Shown here: in pieces, positions 6,354 to 27,862 of the stretch
Position numbering within the stretch: the first letter of the stretch is position 1
How the letters are laid out: each line of letters opens with the position of its first letter
Assembly (NCBI GenBank): GCA_017549565.1
Contig: JAFYUI010000027.1
Location: forward strand, 1-36,227
DNA: 36,227 bases
From: Clostridia bacterium
Lineage (GTDB): Bacteria; Bacillota; Clostridia; Oscillospirales; Acutalibacteraceae
Direction of reading: 5' to 3'
The notes under the pieces: model-generated
Told to the model about the DNA's origin: nothing
Databases searched by the model: none
The model's input: the letters and a program-made list of their open reading frames with translations, nothing else
Position numbers and translations under genes: made by a program

Positions 6354-7102
6354 TGGTTATTTTCCTCTTGCATTTCAATTTGGAGCATACACATTGAAAC
6401 GGCGGTAACGGCGGCGGTTTCGGTGCGTAAAATGCGTTTGCCAAGTGATATTACCTTGGCACCCATTTCAAGTGCTTTTTCAATTTCGCTGTTTTCAAAG
6501 CCACCCTCGGGCCCGATGAAAATGCCAACGCTTTTAACATTTTTAAGGTTTTCAAGTGCATCAGCGGTGGCTTTCATACCGTCCTTATTTTCGTAAGGTA
6601 CTAAAATTAAATCAAGCGTTTTTGCAAACTCAAGCGCCTTATCAAAGGTGCAAACATCCATAATTTCGGGGATAATGTTTCGTTTGCTTTGCTTTGCGGC
6701 GCTTTCAGAAATGCTTTGCCAACGGGTTTGTTTTGATTTTGCTTTTTTGTCATCAAGCTTTACAACACAGTGCTTCATTTCCACCGGCACAACGGCATAA
6801 GCCCCAAGCTCGACGGATTTTTGTATGATATACTCCATCTTGTCGCCTTTGGCAAGCCCTTGAAAAAGATAAATTTTAACGGGCAGCTCGGTGTCGTTAT
6901 AATTTTCTTCAATTATTTCGAGGCAAACGGCATCTTCAAAAAAGCTGTCAATTCGGCACAAATCACTCTGCCCTCCGCAGCTTACAAGGCAGGTGTCACC
7001 AACCTGCATACGAAGCACATTTTTAATGTGGTTATAATCCGCCCCGTTTATAATATAGCGTGAATTTTGCTTGTTTTTTTCACTGCAAAAAAAGTTAAAC
7101 AT
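6350..7102 (-). CDS. rsmE: 16S rRNA (uracil(1498)-N3)-methyltransferase RsmE
   Basis: A 250-aa SPOUT-class enzyme that methylates U1498 of 16S rRNA. It has the N-terminal PUA-like domain (1-70) and the trefoil-knot SAM site IGPEGGFENSEIE with LGKRILRTETA near the C-terminus, both hallmarks of RsmE. I place the start at ATG 7102 (MFNFFCSEK), 10 nt after AAGGG. The upstream in-frame TTG at 7111 abuts that ribosome site and would leave no spacing. It is the first gene of the operon with the RsmF-like enzyme (4-nt overlap) and the CE4 protein. A sigma-A promoter lies at 7136-7164. Confidence 0.94.
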   Translation of the reverse strand: MFNFFCSEKNKQNSRYIINGADYNHIKNVLRMQVGDTCLVSCGGQSDLCRIDSFFEDAVCLEIIEENYNDTELPVKIYLFQGLAKGDKMEYIIQKSVELGAYAVVPVEMKHCVVKLDDKKAKSKQTRWQSISESAAKQSKRNIIPEIMDVCTFDKALEFAKTLDLILVPYENKDGMKATADALENLKNVKSVGIFIGPEGGFENSEIEKALEMGAKVISLGKRILRTETAAVTAVSMCMLQIEMQEENNQ

Positions 7103-7135
7103 ATCTATCAAACCCTTAAAATTAAGTTTAAATAA

Positions 7136-7164
7136 ATTTTATCATAAATTAAAAATATTATCAA
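7136..7164 (-). promoter_or_regulatory. Sigma-A promoter of the rsmE operon
   Basis: On the minus strand: TTGATA (7159-7164), 17-nt spacer, TAAAAT (7136-7141). The -35 starts only 6 nt from the hairpin at 7171-7208. Confidence 0.78.
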
Positions 7165-7170
7165 CATTTC

Positions 7171-7208
7171 AAAAGAAAAAAGACGGCGAAATTTCACCGT
7201 CTTTTTTC
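7171..7208. terminator. Orphan terminator-like hairpin T1 (twin of 7537-7574)
   Basis: AAAAAAGACGG / CCGTCTTTTTT stem with an inner GAAATTTC palindrome and one C/A mismatch. It differs from the hairpin at 7537-7574 in a single base over 38 nt. It lies between the divergent genes rsmE and xre, where no gene needs termination on either strand. Confidence 0.75.
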
Positions 7209-7248
7209 TGTGTCGCAACAGTAGAGATGTGTTCTTTAAACTAAATAT

Positions 7249-7286
7249 AACACAAAAATGTGTTATTGTCAACACATTTTTGTGTT
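7249..7286. promoter_or_regulatory. Operator-like 16-bp perfect inverted repeat upstream of xre
   Basis: AACACAAAAATGTGTT (7249-7264) and its exact reverse complement AACACATTTTTGTGTT (7271-7286) are separated by ATTGTC. Each arm is itself a dyad, AACACA-N4-TGTGTT, so the site offers two dimer sites 22 nt centre to centre. A -35-like TTGTCA (7266-7271) lies in the centre. This suggests cooperative autoregulation by the XRE protein starting at 7317. Confidence 0.7.
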
Positions 7287-7316
7287 TCGATTTAAAATAT
7301 GTTTAGAGGTGATTTT

Positions 7317-7526
7317 ATGAAACACTTGTATCAAAGAATACGCGATTTGCGCGAGGATGCCGATAAAACACAAGCCGAGCTTGCAAAAATTTTGGGGACA
7401 CACACCACACAATATCGTAGATGGGAAACAGGTGAGACCGAAATACCTACCCACAAGGTAATTGAACTATGCAAATTTTATAAAGTATCGGCAGACTATA
7501 TTTTAGGATTAAATAATAAATTATAA
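7317..7526 (+). CDS. XRE-family helix-turn-helix transcriptional regulator
   Basis: A 69-aa single-domain Cro/C1-type DNA-binding protein. The HTH_3 pattern is clear: RIRDLREDADKTQAELAKIL, then the recognition-helix region THTTQYRRWETG, then IPTHKVIELCKFYKVSADYILGL. There is no other domain, so it is probably a dimeric repressor. Start chosen at ATG 7317, 7 nt after AGAGGTGA; the longer form from 7299 has no ribosome site. The paired dyad operator just upstream suggests autoregulation. It is convergent with the small LexA-boxed gene and lies as a lone plus-strand gene between two near-identical hairpins, which suggests acquisition as a cassette. Targets other than itself are unknown. Confidence 0.88.
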   Translation: MKHLYQRIRDLREDADKTQAELAKILGTHTTQYRRWETGETEIPTHKVIELCKFYKVSADYILGLNNKL

Positions 7527-7536
7527 GTTGTAAAGT

Positions 7537-7574
7537 AAAAGAAAAAAGACGGCGAAATTTCGCCGTCTTTTTTC
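7537..7574. terminator. Bidirectional terminator T2 (xre and small SOS gene)
   Basis: A perfect stem AAAAAAGACGGC-GAAATTTC-GCCGTCTTTTTT with A/T tails on both sides. It terminates xre on plus and the 55-aa membrane protein gene on minus. Confidence 0.92.
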
Positions 7575-7614
7575 ATAAAGGAATAAAAAGTTAATGGAGT
7601 GTTGTTAAGTATAA

Positions 7615-7782
7615 TTAGTTTATTGCACGCTGCGATTTAACAACGCGGAAGCTTTTGCGGCGAAAATATGCCACAATTTTGCGTTCAAACGCTAAAAGGC
7701 GGTGCTCGTTAAAGATGCCCCAAACAAGTGCAGCAACAAGTAAAAATTCAAAAACTGTGCTAAAAATATCAAAAAAAGTCAT
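7615..7782 (-). CDS. 55-aa single-pass membrane protein, predicted LexA (SOS) regulon
   Basis: A small protein of unknown family. Residues 1-8 are short and hydrophobic-rich, residues 8-24 form one transmembrane helix (TVFEFLLVAALVWGIF), and residues 25-55 are basic and amphipathic (RKIVAYFRRKSFRVVKSQR), probably cytosolic. Start at 7782 has a near-perfect GGGAGGT site. The frame continues upstream to 7845 but that would run through the promoter and LexA box, so it is not coding. Expression signals are unusually strong: TTGACA-N17-TATAAT followed by a perfect Cheo box. By analogy with known SOS-induced small membrane proteins (YneA, Caulobacter SidA, E. coli TisB) it could block division or lower membrane potential; this is inference, and no homology to those proteins is visible. 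Confidence 0.82.
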   Translation of the reverse strand: MTFFDIFSTVFEFLLVAALVWGIFNEHRLLAFERKIVAYFRRKSFRVVKSQRAIN

Positions 7783-7794
7783 TTTATTACCTCC

Positions 7795-7808
7795 CGAACA
7801 TTTGTTCG
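7795..7808. promoter_or_regulatory. LexA/DinR (Cheo) SOS box
   Basis: CGAACATTTGTTCG is a 14-bp site containing the Gram-positive LexA core GAAC-N4-GTTC, with symmetric C/G flanks. It lies 8 nt downstream of the -10 and 12 nt before the start codon of the 55-aa gene, where bound LexA would block transcription. I noticed no other such box in the window, including before recA. Confidence 0.88.
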
Positions 7809-7816
7809 TTATCTGT

Positions 7817-7845
7817 ATTATAGTGCATTTTTTGCACTTTGTCAA
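7817..7845 (-). promoter_or_regulatory. Consensus sigma-A promoter with dyad in the spacer
   Basis: On the minus strand: TTGACA (7840-7845), exactly 17 nt, TATAAT (7817-7822), both perfect consensus. The spacer contains AGTGCA-N5-TGCACT (7822-7838), a second possible operator besides the LexA box. Confidence 0.93.
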
Positions 7846-7932
7846 GGGTTTTTTGAAAAAATTTTTGGTTTGTTTTCCCTTGCTGTGATTTTACTATACA
7901 ATATCTTATGTACACTTTTTGGTACGCAACTT

Positions 7933-7966
7933 AATATTAAATTTAAGGTAGTAAAAATTTAATATT
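7933..7966. repeat. 12-bp AT-only inverted repeat
   Basis: AATATTAAATTT (7933-7944) and AAATTTAATATT (7955-7966) are exact reverse complements with a 10-nt spacer. It lies about 50 nt upstream of the promoter of the long operon and could be an operator or an AT-rich cruciform. No coding sequence is visible here. Confidence 0.45.
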
Positions 7967-8012
7967 TATTAACAATTTAAGTGAAATAATGCTTTATTTT
8001 TGCGGGGCTTTA

Positions 8013-8021
8013 TGTTATAAT
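8013..8021 (+). promoter_or_regulatory. Extended -10 promoter of the 16-gene run
   Basis: TGTTATAAT is a perfect extended -10; the -35 region (TTTATT) is weak. It is the only good promoter seen upstream of the lipoprotein gene at 8060. Confidence 0.65.
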
Positions 8022-8059
8022 TTACTGTGAATAGTTATGTATTGAAAGGAGAGGTGGAA

Positions 8060-9385
8060 ATGCTTAAAAAAATTGCTTTGGCAGTGGTGTGTTTTGTTAT
8101 GATTTTATTACTTTGCGGTTGCGATTTTTTCAAAACCGATATGGCAGAGCTTTTTACACCTCCCACCCTTACAGGTGATTTTAAATATATTTCACAGGTC
8201 ATTTCAAAAACTGCGGGAAGCGGTTATACACTAAAATATCCCGCGCGTGGTGAACACCGTTCGGCAGTTGTGCAGTATGATATTAACGGTGACGGTAAAA
8301 ACGAGGCCTTTGCCTTTTACAGCAAGACCGAGGGTGATGTTACCACAATGACGGTTCAGCTTGTGCGCAATCAAAATGGTGAATGGGTTGACGGTGGTAC
8401 ACAAAGCATTGTTGCTGCCGGTGTTGATATGGTGCAGTTTTGCGACCTTGACAATAACGGCATTTCTGAAATATTGGTTGGCTGGCAGGTATACGGCACA
8501 AGCGAAATGCAGCTTGCGGTTTACAGCTATAGCGAAAACACCTTTGCACAGCGTTTGCTTCAAAAATACAACCATTTTATTACCTGCGATTTAAACGGTG
8601 ACAAAAAAAGCGGCGTGCTTATTGTTGATATAAACACCTCAAAGCAGTACAACACCGCCGCACTTTACACCTTTAATGATGAGGGTGTTATTCAAAGCGG
8701 TATTTGTGAGCTTGACAGTAAAATTCAGTCGGCTAATGAGCCAATTGTGGCCGAGCTTTCAAATGGCAAAATGGCGGTGTATATTGATGCGGTTAAGGGC
8801 GTGGGCGCCGTTACTGAAGTTTTGGTGGAAAACCGCGGCGGTATTTATAACCCGCTTTTTGATGCTGAAACCCGTGAGAATATACTTACACTTCGTTCTT
8901 CAAGCTATTCGGTAACCGACATAAACAACGACGGCACCTTGGAAATTCCCGTGCAGGAAAATGTGCCTGCAGTTGCTGCTGATGAATTGGCCGAAAAGCT
9001 TTATCTTACCAACTGGTGCTCGTTTGACGGGGAAAACCTTACGGTGCAAATGACAGCAATGATAAATCTGCTTGACGGATATTATTTCAACATCCCAACC
9101 AAGTGGCGCAACCGCATTGCCATTTTAAAGGACACCGAAAACCGCATCCGCGAAATTTATGTATATAATCAAAAAACCGCTACTGTTGGTGAAAGCTTAA
9201 TTTGTATTCGTGCCTTTGATAAACGCGCTTGGGATAAGGGCGAGTTTAAAGAGCTTAAAATGAACGAAATTGCACGAGATAATAACACAGTTTACGCATA
9301 TCGACTAAATGATGCCATTACAAAAATGGGTATTACACACAGCGATGTTAAGGATGCGTTTGTACTGTTTGAGAAATGGGGTTAG
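8060..9385 (+). CDS. Lipoprotein with FG-GAP/VCBS-like Asp-rich repeats
   Basis: A 441-aa predicted exported lipoprotein. It has a basic start (MLKKIA), a hydrophobic core, and the lipobox LLCGC with Cys at about residue 20. At least four Asp/Asn-rich turns follow (DINGDGKNEAF, DLDNNGISEI, DLNGDKKSG, DINNDGTLEI), the signature of FG-GAP/VCBS beta-propeller blades that usually bind calcium. Start at 8060 has AAGGAG 8 nt upstream; the longer frame from 8027 has none. It is first in the run and 6 nt ahead of the response regulator, so it may be an extracytoplasmic partner or output of the two-component system. That functional link is inferred from position only; the ligand is unknown. Confidence 0.8.
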   Translation: MLKKIALAVVCFVMILLLCGCDFFKTDMAELFTPPTLTGDFKYISQVISKTAGSGYTLKYPARGEHRSAVVQYDINGDGKNEAFAFYSKTEGDVTTMTVQLVRNQNGEWVDGGTQSIVAAGVDMVQFCDLDNNGISEILVGWQVYGTSEMQLAVYSYSENTFAQRLLQKYNHFITCDLNGDKKSGVLIVDINTSKQYNTAALYTFNDEGVIQSGICELDSKIQSANEPIVAELSNGKMAVYIDAVKGVGAVTEVLVENRGGIYNPLFDAETRENILTLRSSSYSVTDINNDGTLEIPVQENVPAVAADELAEKLYLTNWCSFDGENLTVQMTAMINLLDGYYFNIPTKWRNRIAILKDTENRIREIYVYNQKTATVGESLICIRAFDKRAWDKGEFKELKMNEIARDNNTVYAYRLNDAITKMGITHSDVKDAFVLFEKWG

Positions 9386-12528: not shown

Positions 12529-13354
12529 GGCATATAATAATATCTCAAAACGCTTGTCGGCGGCAGGCATAGATGACAGCAGCTTTGAAGCAAGGGCAAT
12601 TATCCGCCACATTACAGGGCTTTCAAATGCTGAAATCACTGCCAACCCAATGCGCGCTTTAACCGAATTTCAAGAAAACAATATAACCGCAATTTTGCGT
12701 CAGCGTGAAATTCGTTACCCGCTTCAATATATTTTTGGCACTTGGGATTTTTACAAATATAAATTTAAGGTTGGCGTTGGGGTGCTTATTCCCCGAAGCG
12801 ACACCGAAATTTTGGTAGAAACTGCAAGTGATTATTTAAAGGATAAGCAATCACCTAAGGTTTTAGACCTCTGTGCAGGTAGCGGCTGTATAGGCATATC
12901 ACTTGCAAAGGATTATCCCGATTCGGCGGTGGTTATGCTTGAAAAATATGAGGAAGCGGCAAGATATATAAATCAAAATATTGAGCTTAACTCGGCTTAT
13001 AACACAATGCTTTTAATGGGCGATGCGCTTTTGGGTGACGGTGGTGTGATAGAGTATGATTTAATTGTTTCAAACCCGCCTTATATTCCGCAAAGTGAAA
13101 TTTCTGATATGAACGCCGAAACCAAGTTCGAGCCCGAAACAGCCCTTCTTTGTGAGGGTGACGGCCTTTTGTTTTATAAAACAATTGCCGAAAAGTACAA
13201 AACCGCACTTAAAGATGGCGGTATGTTGGCTTTTGAGGTTGGCTTTAAGCAGGCAAATGCCGTTGCCGATATTTTAAAGGAAAACGGCTATAAGGACATT
13301 AAAAAAATTAAAGATTATAACGGCATCGAGCGTGTCGTTTGTGCATTAAAATAA
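12515..13354 (+). CDS. prmC: Peptide chain release factor N(5)-glutamine methyltransferase PrmC
   Basis: A 279-aa enzyme that methylates the GGQ glutamine of release factors RF1 and RF2 with SAM, enhancing termination. It has an N-terminal helical recognition domain (1-75), the family stretch YIFGTWDFY, SAM motif VLDLCAGSGCIGISLA (117-132) and catalytic NPPY (187-190) in VSNPPYIPQSE. Start chosen at ATG 12515, overlapping DUF1385 by 14 nt, because the homologous N-terminus begins MTIFEAY and a GGGGTG site precedes it. The longer frame to 12473 is the DUF1385 tail in another frame. It ends 15 nt before recA. Confidence 0.94.
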   Translation: MTIFEAYNNISKRLSAAGIDDSSFEARAIIRHITGLSNAEITANPMRALTEFQENNITAILRQREIRYPLQYIFGTWDFYKYKFKVGVGVLIPRSDTEILVETASDYLKDKQSPKVLDLCAGSGCIGISLAKDYPDSAVVMLEKYEEAARYINQNIELNSAYNTMLLMGDALLGDGGVIEYDLIVSNPPYIPQSEISDMNAETKFEPETALLCEGDGLLFYKTIAEKYKTALKDGGMLAFEVGFKQANAVADILKENGYKDIKKIKDYNGIERVVCALK

Positions 13355-13369
13355 ACGGAGGGATTTAAA

Positions 13370-14512
13370 GTGGCAAAAAGTACTACTACAAAAACCGCAG
13401 TTAAATTAGTTGAATCTGAAGAAAAACAAAAAGCGCTGAAAACCGCAATGGACCAAATTGAAAAGCAGTTTGGTAAGGGTGCGGTTATGCGCCTTGGCGA
13501 AAACAGCGGAATGAATGTTGAACATATTAAGACCGGCTCGTTAACACTTGACGTTGCGCTTGGTATCGGCGGTATTCCAAAAGGCCGTATTGTTGAAATT
13601 TACGGTCCGGAATCATCGGGTAAAACCACTGTTGCGCTTCACTGCGTTGCCGAAGCACAAAAGGCAGGCGGCACCGCTGCATTTATCGACGTTGAACACG
13701 CTTTGGACCCTGTTTATGCAGCAAACTTGGGTGTTGATATTGATTCATTATTGGTTTCACAGCCCGATTCGGGCGAGCAAGCCCTTGAAATTGCCGAAGC
13801 GTTAGTGCGTTCGGGCGCTATTGATATTATTGTTATCGACTCGGTAGCGGCTCTTGTTACCCGTGCTGAAATCGAGGGTGAAATGGGTGACAACCACGTT
13901 GGTCAGTTAGCCCGCCTTATGTCACAGGCACTTCGCAAGCTTACAGGTGCGCTTTCAAAAACAAACTGCGCCGCAATTTTTATAAACCAACTTCGTGAAA
14001 AAATCGGCGTTATGTACGGCAACCCCGAGGTTACCACAGGTGGCCGTGCGCTTAAATTCTATTCATCAGTTCGTATCGATGTAAGAAAGGGCGAGCCGAT
14101 TAAGGACGGCAGCGATATTATCGGTGTTCACACCAAGGCAAAAATTGTTAAAAATAAGGTGGCACCACCCTTTAAGGTTGCCGAATTTGACATTATGTAC
14201 GGCACAGGCATTTCCCACACAGGTGAAATCGTTGATGCAGGTGTTGACACAGGCGTTATTAAAAAGTCGGGCGCGTGGTTCTATTACGGTGAAACCCGTT
14301 TGGGTCAAGGCCGAGATAATGTTAAAAAGCTTTTTGAAGACAATGCCGAGCTTGCTGAAAAAATCGAAAACGAAATTATGGCAAAGCTTTCGGATGCTGC
14401 AAAAAATATTACAGCCCCCGTTAATGATGATGACGAGGATGTAATTATGCCGACCGAACCGATTGCCCGCCCACGCAAATCAATCGATATCGACATTGCA
14501 GTTGACGACTAA
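13370..14512 (+). CDS. recA: Recombinase RecA
   Basis: The strand-exchange protein of homologous recombination and co-protease for LexA cleavage. Walker A is GPESSGKTT, with the RecA block [11 protein letters not shown], Walker [11 protein letters not shown] and L2-region signature [13 protein letters not shown] all intact. At 380 aa it is slightly long, with an acidic C-terminal tail (DDDEDV). Translation starts at GTG 13370, preceded by GGAGGG. It follows prmC by 15 nt with no promoter, terminator or LexA box in the gap. On this evidence transcription comes from the upstream operon rather than from a dedicated SOS promoter, which is unusual for recA, although a promoter inside prmC cannot be excluded. 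Confidence 0.98.
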
Positions 14513-20614: not shown

Positions 20615-22090
20615 ATGGAAGAAAGAAAAGATTTTGAAGATATTATTTCCAGTTCTAAAATGAATAATGATTTTGTTGATGTTTCATCTACAAGTGCCAA
20701 CCTTAAAGGCAAGCATTTTGCAAAGAAAAAGCGCGGTATTACGGGCTTTTTTCAAAAAATAGGACATGCCTTTAAATCACTTAAACCAAAAACCAAAAAA
20801 ACCTTAATTGTGCTTACTGCTTTAATTTTGGTTTTTGCCATTGCGTTTGGTGTTTTATTTAACATATTTAACTACAACTATAACGATATTACCGACAACC
20901 CCGAAGATTTGGGATTTGAGAATGTTGTTGACAAAAAGGTTATAAATATCGCACTTTTCGGTATTGATTCAAGAAGTAAAAGCTTTAAGGGTAATTCCGA
21001 CTCGATAATGGTTTTAAGTATAAATACCGAACTTAAAACGGTAAAACTTGTTTCAATCGTTCGTGACACATTAGTTAAAATTGAACAACGCGGGCAAATA
21101 AAATACCGCAAAATCAATTCGGCCTATGCGCAAAGCCCCGAGCTTGCAATTAAAACCTTAAACCAAAACTTCGGCCTTGATATTTCAGAATATGCTACGG
21201 TTAATTTTTACGGTATGGCTGAAATCATCGATGCTGTTGGCGGTATAGAGGTTGAATTAGTTAAGGGTGAGGTTGTGCCTATGAGTCAAAGCGTTCACGC
21301 TCTTAACGGTCTAATAAAAGAAATTTGCACACATGCGGGCAAAAACCCTGAAAAATATTACATTTATGAACCGGGCAAATATAAGCTGAACGGTATACAG
21401 GCGGTAGCATATTCCCGTATTCGTAAAACCAAAAATGTGTGGGGCACTAATAATGACTATGGCCGAACCGACCGTCAACGCTATGTAATGGAGCAGCTTT
21501 TTAATAAAGCCCTTACAATGAAGAAAAGCGAATATATAAAACTTGCAAAGGCGTTAATGCCTTACACACAAACTTCGCTTTCTTACAGTGAAATAATGGG
21601 ACTCGCCTTTGATGTTTTGCTTAAATCACCAACCTTTTCACAGTCACGCGTTCCACTTGATATGTATATGATGAGCGGTCTTAACATTAAGGGTGTTGGA
21701 GACTGTGTTTATTATGATCTTTCATATGCAAGCAAGATTTTACACGCTTATTTTTATGATAATATAACCCCTGAAGATTATATCGCACAAAACGGTATCG
21801 AGAAAAACGATTGGTATAGAAATGAAACAGGCGGTGTAGGTATAATTTCCAAACCCTCTACACCTAACAATTCCGAACCGTCGATCGAGGACCCCGAAGT
21901 ATCCGAACCGTCGATCGAGGGACCCGAGGTATCCGAACCCGATGTTTCAGAGCCCGATGTTTCAGAGCCCGACACCTCCACACCTGAGGAATCTAAACCC
22001 AATTTACCAAATGATGAAAACACCGAAAACGAGGGTGGAGATGATGATACTCCACCAGTATCGAGTGAAGAGCAGGGTGGTGAAGGATAG
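20615..22090 (+). CDS. LytR-CpsA-Psr (LCP) family protein with acidic repeat tail
   Basis: A 491-aa membrane-anchored enzyme. LCP proteins transfer undecaprenyl-linked polymers, such as wall teichoic acid or capsule, to peptidoglycan. A basic cytosolic N-terminus is followed by TM 62-84 and then the LCP domain with ALFGIDSRS, SDSIMVLSINTE, SIVRDTLVKI, KINSAYAQ, VDAVGGIEV-like AEIIDAVGGIEVEL, and YSRIRKTKNVWGTNNDYGR with the pyrophosphate-binding Arg cluster. After about residue 413 a low-complexity tail rich in Pro, Ser, Glu and Asp carries repeats of SEPSIEGPEV and SEPDV, probably a wall-spanning spacer. The start has AAGGTGG 7 nt upstream. It overlaps the next gene by 1 nt (TAGTG). Confidence 0.92.
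   Translation: MEERKDFEDIISSSKMNNDFVDVSSTSANLKGKHFAKKKRGITGFFQKIGHAFKSLKPKTKKTLIVLTALILVFAIAFGVLFNIFNYNYNDITDNPEDLGFENVVDKKVINIALFGIDSRSKSFKGNSDSIMVLSINTELKTVKLVSIVRDTLVKIEQRGQIKYRKINSAYAQSPELAIKTLNQNFGLDISEYATVNFYGMAEIIDAVGGIEVELVKGEVVPMSQSVHALNGLIKEICTHAGKNPEKYYIYEPGKYKLNGIQAVAYSRIRKTKNVWGTNNDYGRTDRQRYVMEQLFNKALTMKKSEYIKLAKALMPYTQTSLSYSEIMGLAFDVLLKSPTFSQSRVPLDMYMMSGLNIKGVGDCVYYDLSYASKILHAYFYDNITPEDYIAQNGIEKNDWYRNETGGVGIISKPSTPNNSEPSIEDPEVSEPSIEGPEVSEPDVSEPDVSEPDTSTPEESKPNLPNDENTENEGGDDDTPPVSSEEQGGEG
21872..21976 (+). repeat. Tandem coding repeats in the LCP protein tail
   Basis: Two 30-nt units (21872-21901 and 21902-21931) differ at three positions and encode SEPSIE(D/G)PEV. They are followed by two 15-nt units encoding SEPDV. 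Units are multiples of three, so gain or loss changes tail length without frameshift. Confidence 0.85.
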
Positions 22091-25012: not shown

Positions 25013-27415
25013 TTACTCAACCGGTTTAATGTGCCAAATATCACGCGCATAATCTTCGATAGAACGATCAGCTGCAAACACACCTGATTTTGCAATGTTT
25101 ACAAGTGACATATTGTTCCAAACATCACGGTTGTTATAAAGCTCGGTTGCTTTTTTCTGGGCTGACTGATAATCGGCAAAGTCGGCCAAAGCCATATAAT
25201 TATCGTGATTTTTAAGCGAGTAATAGATGCTGTCAAAATTCATACCGCCAAAGCCCCTGCCAATAAAGTCCAAGGCCTCGCGCAATGTTTCGTTATTGTT
25301 ATAATATTCATACGGGCTGTAACCCTGCTTTTGTAAACGCAAAACCTCGGGTGTTTGCATACCGAAAATGATAATGTTGTCATCCCCAACCTCGCTGTGA
25401 ATTTCAACATTTGCGCCGTCTTCGGTGCCTAAGGTGATTGCACCATTCATCATAAGCTTCATATTACCTGTACCGCTGGCTTCGGTAGAAGCAAGTGAAA
25501 TTTGTTCACTAATGTCGGCAGAGGGAATCATAAGCTCGGCCATAGTAACGCGGTAATTTTCAAGGAATAATATTTTAAGCTTATCCTTAACATCAGGGTC
25601 GTTTTCAAGTAAGCAGGAAAGCTTATAAATCATTTGAATAACCTGTTTAGCAAAAAGATAACCTGGGGCTGCCTTTGCACCGAAAATATAGGTTTTTGGT
25701 GTAAATGGTGCGTTGGGGTTGTTTTTAATAAACTGGTATTCGCTTATAATGTTTAAAACATTAAGGTGTTGGCGCTTATATTCGTGAAGTCGCTTAACCT
25801 GCATATCAAAGATAGATTCAGGGTTTAAAATAATGCCTGTTTCATCTTTAATATATTTTGCAAAGCGTTGCTTATTATGCAGTTTAATTTCGCCAAGTTT
25901 ATCTAAAACGGCTTTATCATCCTTAAATGCCATAAGCTTTTCAAGGTTTCTTGCATCCTTAATAAAGTCATCACCAATGGTGTCGGTTAAGAAGGATGTA
26001 AGCTCGGGGTTTGCGCAGCAAAGCCAACGTCTGTGTGCAATACCGTTTGTAACATTTGTGAATTTATCTGGTGTTAAACGAACATAATCTTTAAAGAGCT
26101 CATCAACCAAAATCTTACTGTGAAGCTTTGAAACGCCGTTTACTGTGTGACAGGTTGCACAGCAAAGATTCGCCATTCTAACAACGCCGTTTGAAATAAC
26201 GCTTGTGCGCTCAGCAAGGTCGAAATCGCCTGTTTTTGCGATAACTTCTTGGCGCCAGCGTTTGTCAATTTCCTTAATAATTTGATAAATGCGGGGAAGT
26301 CGTTCTTTAATAAGTCCTTCGGACCAGCATTCAAGAGCTTCCTGCATAATGGTGTGGTTAGTGTAGGCAACTGTTTTGGTGACAAGTGCCCAGGCATCCT
26401 CCCAAGTGTAGCCACATTCATCAAGCAAGAATCTCATAAGCTCGGGAATAGAAAGTGTTGGGTGGGTGTCGTTAATATGAATTGCCACCTTGTCGGGCAA
26501 ATTGTTAAGCGTGTTATAGGTACGCAAATGGCGGTGCAAAATATCCTGAATTGATGCCGATACCAAGAAATACTGCTGGCGCAGTCGCAACGACTTACCT
26601 TCATAATGATTGTCAGCAGGGTATAATACCTTTGAAATATTTTCAGCCATTGCGCGTTGCTCAATAGCGCGAACATAGTCACCTTGGTTAAATGCCGACA
26701 TATCAAATTCACGGCATTCAGCGCTCCAAAGGCGAAGTGCGTTAATGGTTTTACCGTCCTTACCTGCAACCATAAGGTCATAGGGCACAGCGCGAACGGT
26801 TTGATAATCGCGGTGCTCAATGTGGTGATAACCGTTATCCCACCATTCGTTAACATAACCGTCAAAGTTTACATCCACAGCAGAGCCGGGGCGTGCTTCA
26901 AGCCAAACGCCACCGCCGGGAAGCCAAAAGTCAGGCATTTCGGTCTGCCAGCCGTCAACAAGCTTTTGACGGAAAATACCAAGCTCGTAATTTATGCAAT
27001 AGCCCATAGCGGAATATCCACCGCTTGAAAGAGCATCCAAAAAACAAGCAGCAAGTCGACCAAGACCACCATTACCAAGACCTGCATCGGGCTCTAACTC
27101 GTAAAGGTTGTCAAGCTTAACGCCAAACTTTGCTAATGCCTTTTCCATGGTAGAGGTTAAATCCATATTAAAAAGGTTATTTTTAAAGGAACGGCCCATT
27201 AAAAATTCCATACTTAAATAGTAAACGGTTTTTGCCTGTTGCTCGGCAGTAGCTTTTTTAAATTCGCTTCTGCGTTCCTTCATAATGTCAAGCAGTGTTA
27301 AAACACTTGCTTTATAAAAAAGCTCATCAGATGCTTGGTCGGGTGTAACGCCAAAATTATGTGAAAGCTTTTTTTCTATAAGTGTGGCAAGCTTTGTGCT
27401 TGAAAGCTTTGTCAT
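25013..27415 (-). CDS. glgP: Glycogen/starch/alpha-glucan phosphorylase
   Basis: An 800-aa GT35 enzyme that phosphorolyses alpha-1,4-glucan to glucose-1-phosphate using pyridoxal phosphate. Full length for the family. Seen: YYLSMEFLMGR near residue 72, the GNGGLGRLAACFLDAL block, and the PLP site EASGTGNMKLMMNG with K653. The start at 27415 is preceded by GGAGATG. It heads a two-gene operon with the GH13 enzyme, which would generate or trim the oligosaccharides it degrades. The upstream 200 nt is AT-rich with an inverted repeat at 27507-27529; I could not pick a convincing sigma-A promoter, and no cre site is obvious. Confidence 0.97.
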   Translation of the reverse strand: MTKLSSTKLATLIEKKLSHNFGVTPDQASDELFYKASVLTLLDIMKERRSEFKKATAEQQAKTVYYLSMEFLMGRSFKNNLFNMDLTSTMEKALAKFGVKLDNLYELEPDAGLGNGGLGRLAACFLDALSSGGYSAMGYCINYELGIFRQKLVDGWQTEMPDFWLPGGGVWLEARPGSAVDVNFDGYVNEWWDNGYHHIEHRDYQTVRAVPYDLMVAGKDGKTINALRLWSAECREFDMSAFNQGDYVRAIEQRAMAENISKVLYPADNHYEGKSLRLRQQYFLVSASIQDILHRHLRTYNTLNNLPDKVAIHINDTHPTLSIPELMRFLLDECGYTWEDAWALVTKTVAYTNHTIMQEALECWSEGLIKERLPRIYQIIKEIDKRWRQEVIAKTGDFDLAERTSVISNGVVRMANLCCATCHTVNGVSKLHSKILVDELFKDYVRLTPDKFTNVTNGIAHRRWLCCANPELTSFLTDTIGDDFIKDARNLEKLMAFKDDKAVLDKLGEIKLHNKQRFAKYIKDETGIILNPESIFDMQVKRLHEYKRQHLNVLNIISEYQFIKNNPNAPFTPKTYIFGAKAAPGYLFAKQVIQMIYKLSCLLENDPDVKDKLKILFLENYRVTMAELMIPSADISEQISLASTEASGTGNMKLMMNGAITLGTEDGANVEIHSEVGDDNIIIFGMQTPEVLRLQKQGYSPYEYYNNNETLREALDFIGRGFGGMNFDSIYYSLKNHDNYMALADFADYQSAQKKATELYNNRDVWNNMSLVNIAKSGVFAADRSIEDYARDIWHIKPVE

Positions 27416-27833: not shown

Positions 27834-27862
27834 ATTATATCAAAACAAATTTAATTTGTCAA
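27834..27862 (-). promoter_or_regulatory. Consensus sigma-A promoter of the 52-aa protein gene
   Basis: On the minus strand: TTGACA (27857-27862), exactly 17 nt, TATAAT (27834-27839). The -35 directly follows the TGA stop of cls at 27863. Confidence 0.93.

What the first reader, a model, noticed from the sequence alone, without database searches (positions are those of the whole stretch)
7615..7845. SOS-controlled 55-aa membrane protein: candidate new DNA-damage effector
A tiny gene has a textbook sigma-A promoter (perfect hexamers, 17-nt spacer) and a perfect GAAC-N4-GTTC LexA box placed to block it, then a near-perfect ribosome site. The product is one transmembrane helix plus a basic cytosolic tail. 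Known SOS-induced small membrane proteins either stop division (YneA, SidA) or depolarise membranes (TisB); this protein shows no similarity to them that I can see. Strong expression signals on so small an ORF suggest it matters.
Basis: partly seen in the sequence, partly recalled or inferred. Interest (0 to 1): 0.78.

Follow-up and report, generated by a model that had tools for sequence, protein, structure and literature searches.

The report
SOS-switched small membrane protein family
Many gut Clostridia keep a tiny membrane protein under a strong DNA-damage switch; relatives also sit among phage early genes, and it probably works as a short-lived brake while DNA is repaired, though its action is untested.

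Summary
A 55-codon ORF (7618-7782, minus) has a perfect TTGACA-17-TATAAT promoter, a LexA palindrome CGAACAAATGTTCG and GGGAGG before ATG. It is not chance: 33 of 37 sampled same-genus genomes hold a homologue, and 33 of 33 have promoter, perfect GAAC-N4-GTTC box and a 50-85-codon ORF in one string. The genome's LexA is complete; lexA itself carries a weaker box, conserved in 19 of 20 same-genus lexA loci fetched. Of 19 other strong sites, 11 precede Y-family polymerases. The family reaches 50 of 135 sampled genera of the taxonomic family; of 117 copies outside the window's genus 55 have a perfect box and 32 a one-mismatch box; perfect control palindromes 0-1 of 117 each. Some copies, without a nearby box, lie in phage early regions. 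No Pfam, NCBIfam or PDB family fits. Members are predicted single-pass, C-terminus inside, with invariant E33 and, outside the window's genus, mostly a terminal Ala like a degron. Best reading: a DNA-damage brake, most likely on septation, opposite in topology to YneA/SosA. Regulation is well supported; function is inferred.

The parts
7615..7782 (-). 55-aa ORF (stop at 7615-7617): predicted N-out, TM about residues 6-24, cytosolic basic tail
   Evidence: homologue in 33 of 37 sampled same-genus genomes; topology by charge count
7790..7795 (-). ribosome-binding site GGGAGG
7795..7808 (.). LexA box, perfect palindrome CGAACAAATGTTCG (GAAC starts 9 nt after the -10; GTTC ends 13 nt before ATG)
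   Evidence: conserved 33 of 33
7817..7822 (-). -10 hexamer TATAAT
7840..7845 (-). -35 hexamer TTGACA, 17-nt spacer
7541..7574 (-). intrinsic terminator after the ORF, probably shared with the Xre gene 7317-7526

Best explanation
The gene encodes a LexA-repressed, damage-induced, single-pass membrane protein that acts as the brake of a small SOS regulon (lexA, translesion polymerases, this gene). Shown by comparison: a consensus promoter under a consensus LexA operator, kept under selection, and a protein family with a fixed core. Inferred: RecA-triggered LexA cleavage releases a burst of protein; it inserts with its N-terminus outside and its basic tail inside; a stripe of conserved residues (E12 inside the membrane, G22, E26, K/R28, F32, E33) docks on a membrane partner, most likely the septal synthesis machinery (FtsW or its partners, as for YneA and, by low-confidence modelling, SosA, ChiZ and SidA), and delays division; in most other genera a terminal Val/Cys/Ala-Ala tail then marks it for a cytosolic protease, so that the block is lifted after repair. 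Phages carry relatives among their early genes, probably using the same brake on the host.
For: Regulation: 33 of 33 same-genus homologues have TTGACA-17-TATAAT, a perfect box and a 50-85-codon ORF in one string; 3 further same-genus genomes met later have promoter and box too. 55 of 117 copies outside the genus have a perfect box and 32 more one mismatch, against 0-1 of 117 for each of 11 control half-sites (perfect) and 0-9 of 62 (one mismatch, within 110 nt). lexA has GAATAAATGTTC in 19 of 20 same-genus lexA loci fetched (of 33 found). Of 50 GAACAAATGTTC sites in 37 same-genus genomes 31 are at this gene; of the other 19, 11 lie before Y-family polymerases by motif, a twelfth (L167) reads so by eye, 7 are unassigned. 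Effector rather than repair enzyme: no enzyme family fits; single TM, C-in by charge in 117 of 117 tested (30 of the genus, 87 others). Brake-like: the only LysM matches found in this genome are in frames of 518 and 600 aa, so no YneA-like protein was found; terminal Ala in 76 of 87 boxed copies outside the genus against 7 of 85 background ORFs, fitting the proteolytic clearing of SulA, YneA and SosA (PMC13396833 introduction; PMC6851548 abstract). Fixed core: E33 in 120 of 120, E26 in 115, E12 in 104. Phage early copies.
Against: No phenotype, localisation, structure or expression data; division as target is inferred from what such proteins do elsewhere. Known Gram-positive inhibitors have the C-terminus outside and usually lie beside lexA (PMC6851548 passages); here the prediction is C-inside and lexA was not found in the flanks of any of 168 loci. 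The window's own genus lacks the Ala tail (5 of 30). Two same-genus genomes of 96% completeness have no match (G026, G030) yet keep lexA with its box. 30 of 117 copies outside the genus have no box, and 190 of 300 genomes of the family had no match at E 0.01, so the protein is not indispensable or other effectors replace it. The conserved core is partly a result of finding members by profile.
Confidence: 0.5

Rival explanations
1. A membrane-depolarising toxin of the TisB/DinQ kind: SOS-induced, inserts in the membrane, lowers the proton motive force and causes dormancy.
For: Size, one TM helix, tight LexA control; such SOS peptides exist in E. coli (PMC3567139 and PMC11449926, starts of abstracts in listings).
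Against: Those two are paired with antisense or antitoxin RNAs; here the RBS follows the operator directly, and in 7100-8100 the scan finds on the other strand only three weak promoter-like sites (9 of 12 matches; 6 sites in all on both strands against a shuffle mean of 4.8). A strongly conserved charged core (E26, E33) points to a partner rather than a pore.
Confidence: 0.13
2. A modulator of one membrane enzyme, transporter or protease needed in DNA-damaged cells (in the manner of small regulators such as AcrZ or MgtS, recalled), not a division inhibitor.
For: Conserved intramembrane Glu and juxtamembrane motif suggest a specific protein partner; no division gene was noticed travelling with it.
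Against: No partner gene of any kind travels with it; the strength of promoter and operator suits a burst of an inhibitor.
Confidence: 0.22
3. A domesticated phage early gene (host take-over or superinfection exclusion) that came under LexA control as a prophage remnant.
For: Relatives lie behind Cro-like HTH genes or an antirepressor in L133, L140 and L199.
Against: The chromosomal copies stand alone, are widespread in a genus (33 of 37) and keep one promoter design; direction of transfer was not tested by a tree.
Confidence: 0.12
4. A chance ORF behind a LexA box.
For: Very short ORF.
Against: Conserved core in 120 aligned members; over the 51 codons compared L001/L002 differ at 6 sites, all third positions, 5 of 6 codons synonymous; over 32 of the 33 homologues the second codon position changes least (0.246 against 0.569 at the third).
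Confidence: 0.01

Closest known systems
YneA (Bacillus subtilis) and ChiZ (Mycobacterium tuberculosis)
   Same: small SOS-induced single-pass membrane proteins; YneA blocks septal wall synthesis through FtsW TM7 (PMC13396833: abstract, introduction and discussion read)
   Different: they carry an outside C-terminal LysM domain and lie near lexA; here no LysM, predicted C-inside, not beside lexA. No direct sequence comparison with YneA was run; the LysM family did not match
SosA (Staphylococcus aureus)
   Same: 77 aa, one TM, no LysM, LexA-controlled division inhibitor whose C-terminus also serves turnover (PMC6851548: abstract and passages)
   Different: SosA's C-terminus is outside (PhoA/LacZ fusions, passage) and the gene is divergent from lexA; here the predicted topology is opposite and the gene is unlinked. 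No direct sequence comparison was run
SidA / DidA (Caulobacter crescentus)
   Same: very small membrane division inhibitors acting on FtsW or FtsN (PMC13396833 introduction)
   Different: alphaproteobacterial; no sequence comparison was run here
TisB, DinQ (E. coli)
   Same: SOS-induced single-TM peptides
   Different: paired with antisense RNAs; no sign of one here, though not excluded
PHROG phrog_31638 (function unknown, 45 positions)
   Same: weak match to the phage copy L133 (E 0.0014)
   Different: 1 of 13 members matched; no function known

Membership tests
LexA (SOS) regulon | LexA box placed to block the promoter | tested here: met
   binding itself not measured
LexA (SOS) regulon | box conserved upstream of relatives beyond chance | tested here: met
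   33 of 33 in genus; 55 of 117 perfect outside, controls 0-1 of 117
LexA (SOS) regulon | complete LexA in the same genome using the same box | tested here: met
   LexA_DNA_bind E 2.3e-13 and Peptidase_S24 E 2.7e-25 in L062; own box GAATAAATGTTC
LexA (SOS) regulon | transcript rises after DNA damage | not testable with these tools
   no expression data
YneA/ChiZ-type division inhibitors | C-terminal LysM domain | tested here: not met
   no LysM match in the window protein or 13 family members
Gram-positive SOS division inhibitors (YneA, SosA, ChiZ, DivS) | single TM with C-terminus outside | tested here: not met
   single TM met; Lys/Arg count gives C-in for 117 of 117; a prediction only
Gram-positive SOS division inhibitors (YneA, SosA, ChiZ, DivS) | gene beside lexA | tested here: not met
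   tblastn with this genome's LexA finds none in 168 loci, flanks at most 0.7-5 kb
Gram-positive SOS division inhibitors (YneA, SosA, ChiZ, DivS) | blocks division when expressed | not testable with these tools
   needs an experiment
Type I toxin (TisB/DinQ) | antisense RNA antitoxin | tested here: inconclusive
   only weak opposing promoter-like sites in 7100-8100; RNA not measured

The most novel reading that the evidence does not exclude
An undescribed SOS effector family of gut Clostridia, shared between host LexA regulons and phage early operons, that stops the cell from the cytosolic side of the membrane: conserved acidic stripe and basic tail inside, and in most genera a built-in C-terminal degron read by a cytosolic protease, i.e. 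a checkpoint that evolved independently of YneA/SosA with the opposite topology.
Probability: 0.35. Interest if true: 0.8.

Novelty: new variant of a known kind. Interest (0 to 1): 0.66.

Why it matters
How gut and rumen Clostridia hold division during DNA damage was not described in the papers seen here; the study of the gut SOS meta-regulon notes that Gram-positive SOS division inhibitors are scattered over COG categories and so do not show up as enriched (PMC3998124, parts 1-2 of 3 read). This family gives a testable effector for 50 of 135 sampled genera of one large family, with a promoter design that predicts a strong on/off switch, a defined core for mutagenesis and a link to phage early genes.

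Tried and rejected
Type I toxin with antisense RNA: no supporting signal, not excluded. Membership in a Pfam, NCBIfam or PDB family: none credible (best E 0.068, 0.014 and 0.17, the first two for one member each). GenBank phage records by tblastn of three family members, plasmid records with one of them: no match or chance-level matches only. Class-wide profile search with the genus alignment (391 genomes): outside the window's genus only six weak hits (E 4e-4 or worse), no perfect box in those loci nor at the second hit of the same-genus genome G242; this suggested a genus-only gene and was overturned by wider alignments. IMG/VR locus L134 is a chance match inside a long terminase-like ORF (by look). 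Conserved neighbour as a clue to function: none beyond the nearest species. Structure prediction could not be run.

Full report
What is there. On the minus strand, TTGACA-17-TATAAT (7845-7817) is followed 9 nt later by GAACAAATGTTC, then GGGAGG and ATG at 7782; the ORF runs 55 codons to a stop at 7615-7617 and is followed by a strong intrinsic terminator at 7574-7541. The 14-mer CGAACAAATGTTCG is the only exact CGAAC-N4-GTTCG in the window and in the whole 1,488,244-base genome; the looser GAAC-N4-GTTC occurs 3 times in the genome against 50 for the reversed control. Of the other two, one is just upstream of a Y-family polymerase (L032, Pfam IMS, E 6.9e-45) and one lies in a region where only short closed ORFs are listed (L033). 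The genome's lexA (L062) encodes a complete LexA (LexA_DNA_bind and Peptidase_S24) and carries GAATAAATGTTC before its start. recA, at 13370-14512 in the window (RecA, E 1.3e-138), has no GAAC-N4-GTTC box with at most one mismatch in 12950-13380 except one at 13118, inside the gene before it.

Conservation in the genus. A protein search over 60 relatives found matches at E 0.1 in 34 of 37 same-genus genomes; I count 33, dropping G005 (E 0.023, a stop inside). G014 and G005 are 64% and 57% complete; G026 and G030 are 96% complete and have none; a profile search of these four found nothing. The one weak hit outside the genus (G055, E 0.021, a stop inside) was dropped as chance. In 33 of 33 homologues one regular expression (TTGACA, 17 nt, TATAAT, 5-20 nt, GAAC-N4-GTTC, then an ATG ORF of 50-85 codons) matches; it matches, without the ORF-length test, in three further same-genus genomes met later (L136-L138). 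The first script version scored 31 of 32 because it took a wrong strand for L006 and missed L016; both were then verified. The distance from -10 to box is 8-9 or 14-16 nt in 30 of 32 and 11 nt in two, of which one (L006) is that wrong-strand reading. The neighbourhood is not conserved: of 52 loci only the window's own and the closest relative L002 share window neighbours; no ORF cluster recurs in more than six of those 52 loci apart from the gene itself, and tblastn found neither lexA nor dinB in the flanks of any of 168 loci (flanks at most 0.7-5 kb; some loci are the same genome fetched twice). So the unit of inheritance is this gene with its switch.

The regulon. Exact GAACAAATGTTC occurs 50 times in the 37 same-genus genomes. 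Thirty-one sites are at this gene by place; the remaining 19 were all fetched. Eleven lie before Y-family polymerases by sequence motif (7 DinB-like, 4 UmuC-like), a twelfth (L167) reads as one by eye up to its contig end, and seven are unassigned. lexA has the weaker GAATAAATGTTC in 19 of the 20 same-genus lexA loci fetched, of 33 same-genus genomes with a match; the other (G021) has AAACAAAAGTTC. The design is thus graded: a weak box at lexA, strong ones at the polymerases, and a full-consensus promoter with a strong box at the small protein. Graded timing of induction is an inference. Weaker sites elsewhere in the genome (up to two mismatches from GAACAAATGTTC: 74 forward and 73 reverse, below the control's 165 and 155) were not sorted, so the regulon may be larger.

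The wider family. A search of named genomes gave 22 loci; titles that name a source say ruminant or horse gut; 22 of 22 have a perfect GAAC-N4-GTTC upstream. One is Candidatus Howiella intestinavium, placed by NCBI as Clostridia incertae sedis. A four-row alignment found members in other genera (394 genomes of the order: 54 with a match at E 0.1, many of them probably chance). A 13-row alignment found 110 of 300 genomes and 50 of 135 genera of the same taxonomic family; 190 genomes had no match at E 0.01. I scored all 117 rows outside the window's own genus (4 rows of the genus left out): perfect box within 150 nt upstream in 55, one mismatch in 32, none in 30. For the 11 other arrangements of the half-site letters, perfect matches within 110 nt are 0-1 of 117 (within 150 nt also 0-1), and among the 62 rows without a perfect box one-mismatch matches are 0-9 against 32 for the real half-site. 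The 30 without a box include phage or element copies (L140, L146) and weak rows that may be false (L314, L315). By genome, 87 of 106 have a boxed copy, 55 a perfect one.

The protein. In 120 aligned members (33 of the genus, 87 boxed others) E33 is invariant, E26 is in 115, E12 in 104, F32 in 99, G22 in 83; members were found by profile, which favours such a core. E12 lies inside the predicted TM segment (residues 6-24). Lys/Arg counts put the C-terminus inside in 117 of 117 tested (30 of the genus, 87 others). Outside the window's genus 76 of 87 boxed copies end in Ala, 64 of them in VA, CA or AA, against 7 of 85 long ORFs in the same loci; of copies without a box 8 of 30, of the window's genus 5 of 30. 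From general knowledge (recalled), such ends resemble C-terminal signals for ClpXP-type proteases. No Pfam, NCBIfam or solved-structure family fits. The structure machine was busy at all 20 attempts, so there is no model.

Phage relatives. L133 (IMG/VR): integrase, an S24/HTH repressor (Peptidase_S24, E 7.4e-15), a divergent HTH gene with a weak P22_Cro match and then a 46-aa family member. L140 (genome G713): divergent HTH repressor, two small HTH genes, then a 93-aa member; the same genome has a chromosomal, boxed copy (L202). L199 (IMG/VR): a 55-aa member downstream of an HTH gene and a BRO/KilAC antirepressor. No box with at most one mismatch lies within about 270-370 nt upstream in L199 and L133, nor within 150 nt in L140, where a one-mismatch site lies at -213. 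If the S24 repressor of L133 is cleaved in the SOS response, as is usual for that class (recalled), that copy too would be switched on by DNA damage, by another route.

Function. In Gram-positive bacteria the small SOS membrane proteins studied so far block late division; YneA does so by binding FtsW TM7, and SosA, ChiZ and SidA are modelled on FtsW at low confidence (PMC13396833: abstract, introduction, discussion). They share a single TM, a predicted outside C-terminus and mostly a lexA neighbourhood (PMC6851548: abstract and passages). The present family meets the first and fails the other two, so it is not filed as a member; the claim is only that it probably works like one. For: a strong-box regulon otherwise made mostly of the regulator and translesion polymerases; no YneA-like LysM protein found in the genome (LysM only in frames of 518 and 600 aa); full-consensus switch at this gene; unstable-looking ends in other genera; phage use. 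Against: no experiment, opposite predicted topology, relatives that do without it, and no Ala tail in the window's own genus.

Prior knowledge. Eight library searches listed no paper on a LexA-controlled small membrane protein in these Clostridia, as far as titles and abstract starts show. The in-silico C. difficile LexA regulon lists one putative membrane protein with a box at -111, and its main text does not contain the words cell division, yneA or sulA (PMC4234289, term search and passages); the gut SOS meta-regulon paper does not name such a protein in the two of three parts read. Subscription papers and supplements were not searched.

Noticed in passing
L172:1085-1200 (G028:C20 near 1740): A LexA box sits between a TTGACA and a TATAAT hexamer, with no good ORF directly behind it; perhaps an SOS-controlled small RNA.
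   Followed up: no
L176 and L177 (G027:C30 and C41): Two similar stretches carry a LexA-type box after a promoter-like sequence and before a shared short leader; possibly a repeated element under SOS control.
   Followed up: no
L173:1217-1243 (G018:C21): Two GAAC-N4-GTTC boxes 15 nt apart; genes around not identified.
   Followed up: no
7249-7286: A 17-pair inverted repeat overlaps a TTGACA-17-TATATT promoter in front of the small Xre gene 7317-7526; perhaps an autoregulatory operator. The Xre gene was not found in the closest relative's locus L002.
   Followed up: partly
7178-7208 and 7541-7574: Two similar GACGGCGAAATTTC..GTC hairpins flank the Xre gene; the first seen by eye, the second also by the scan.
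   Followed up: no
27834-27862: A second perfect TTGACA-17-TATAAT in the window, upstream of a carbohydrate phosphorylase gene (25013-27415), without a LexA box.
   Followed up: no
21790-22090: Tandem Ser/Pro/Glu-rich repeats at the C-terminus of a LytR_cpsA_psr protein give the one-mismatch box hits at 21874 and 21904.
   Followed up: partly
L146, L254, L258 (G618): Three family copies in one genome; one (L146) follows a DUF3102 gene, one (L258) has a perfect LexA box.
   Followed up: partly
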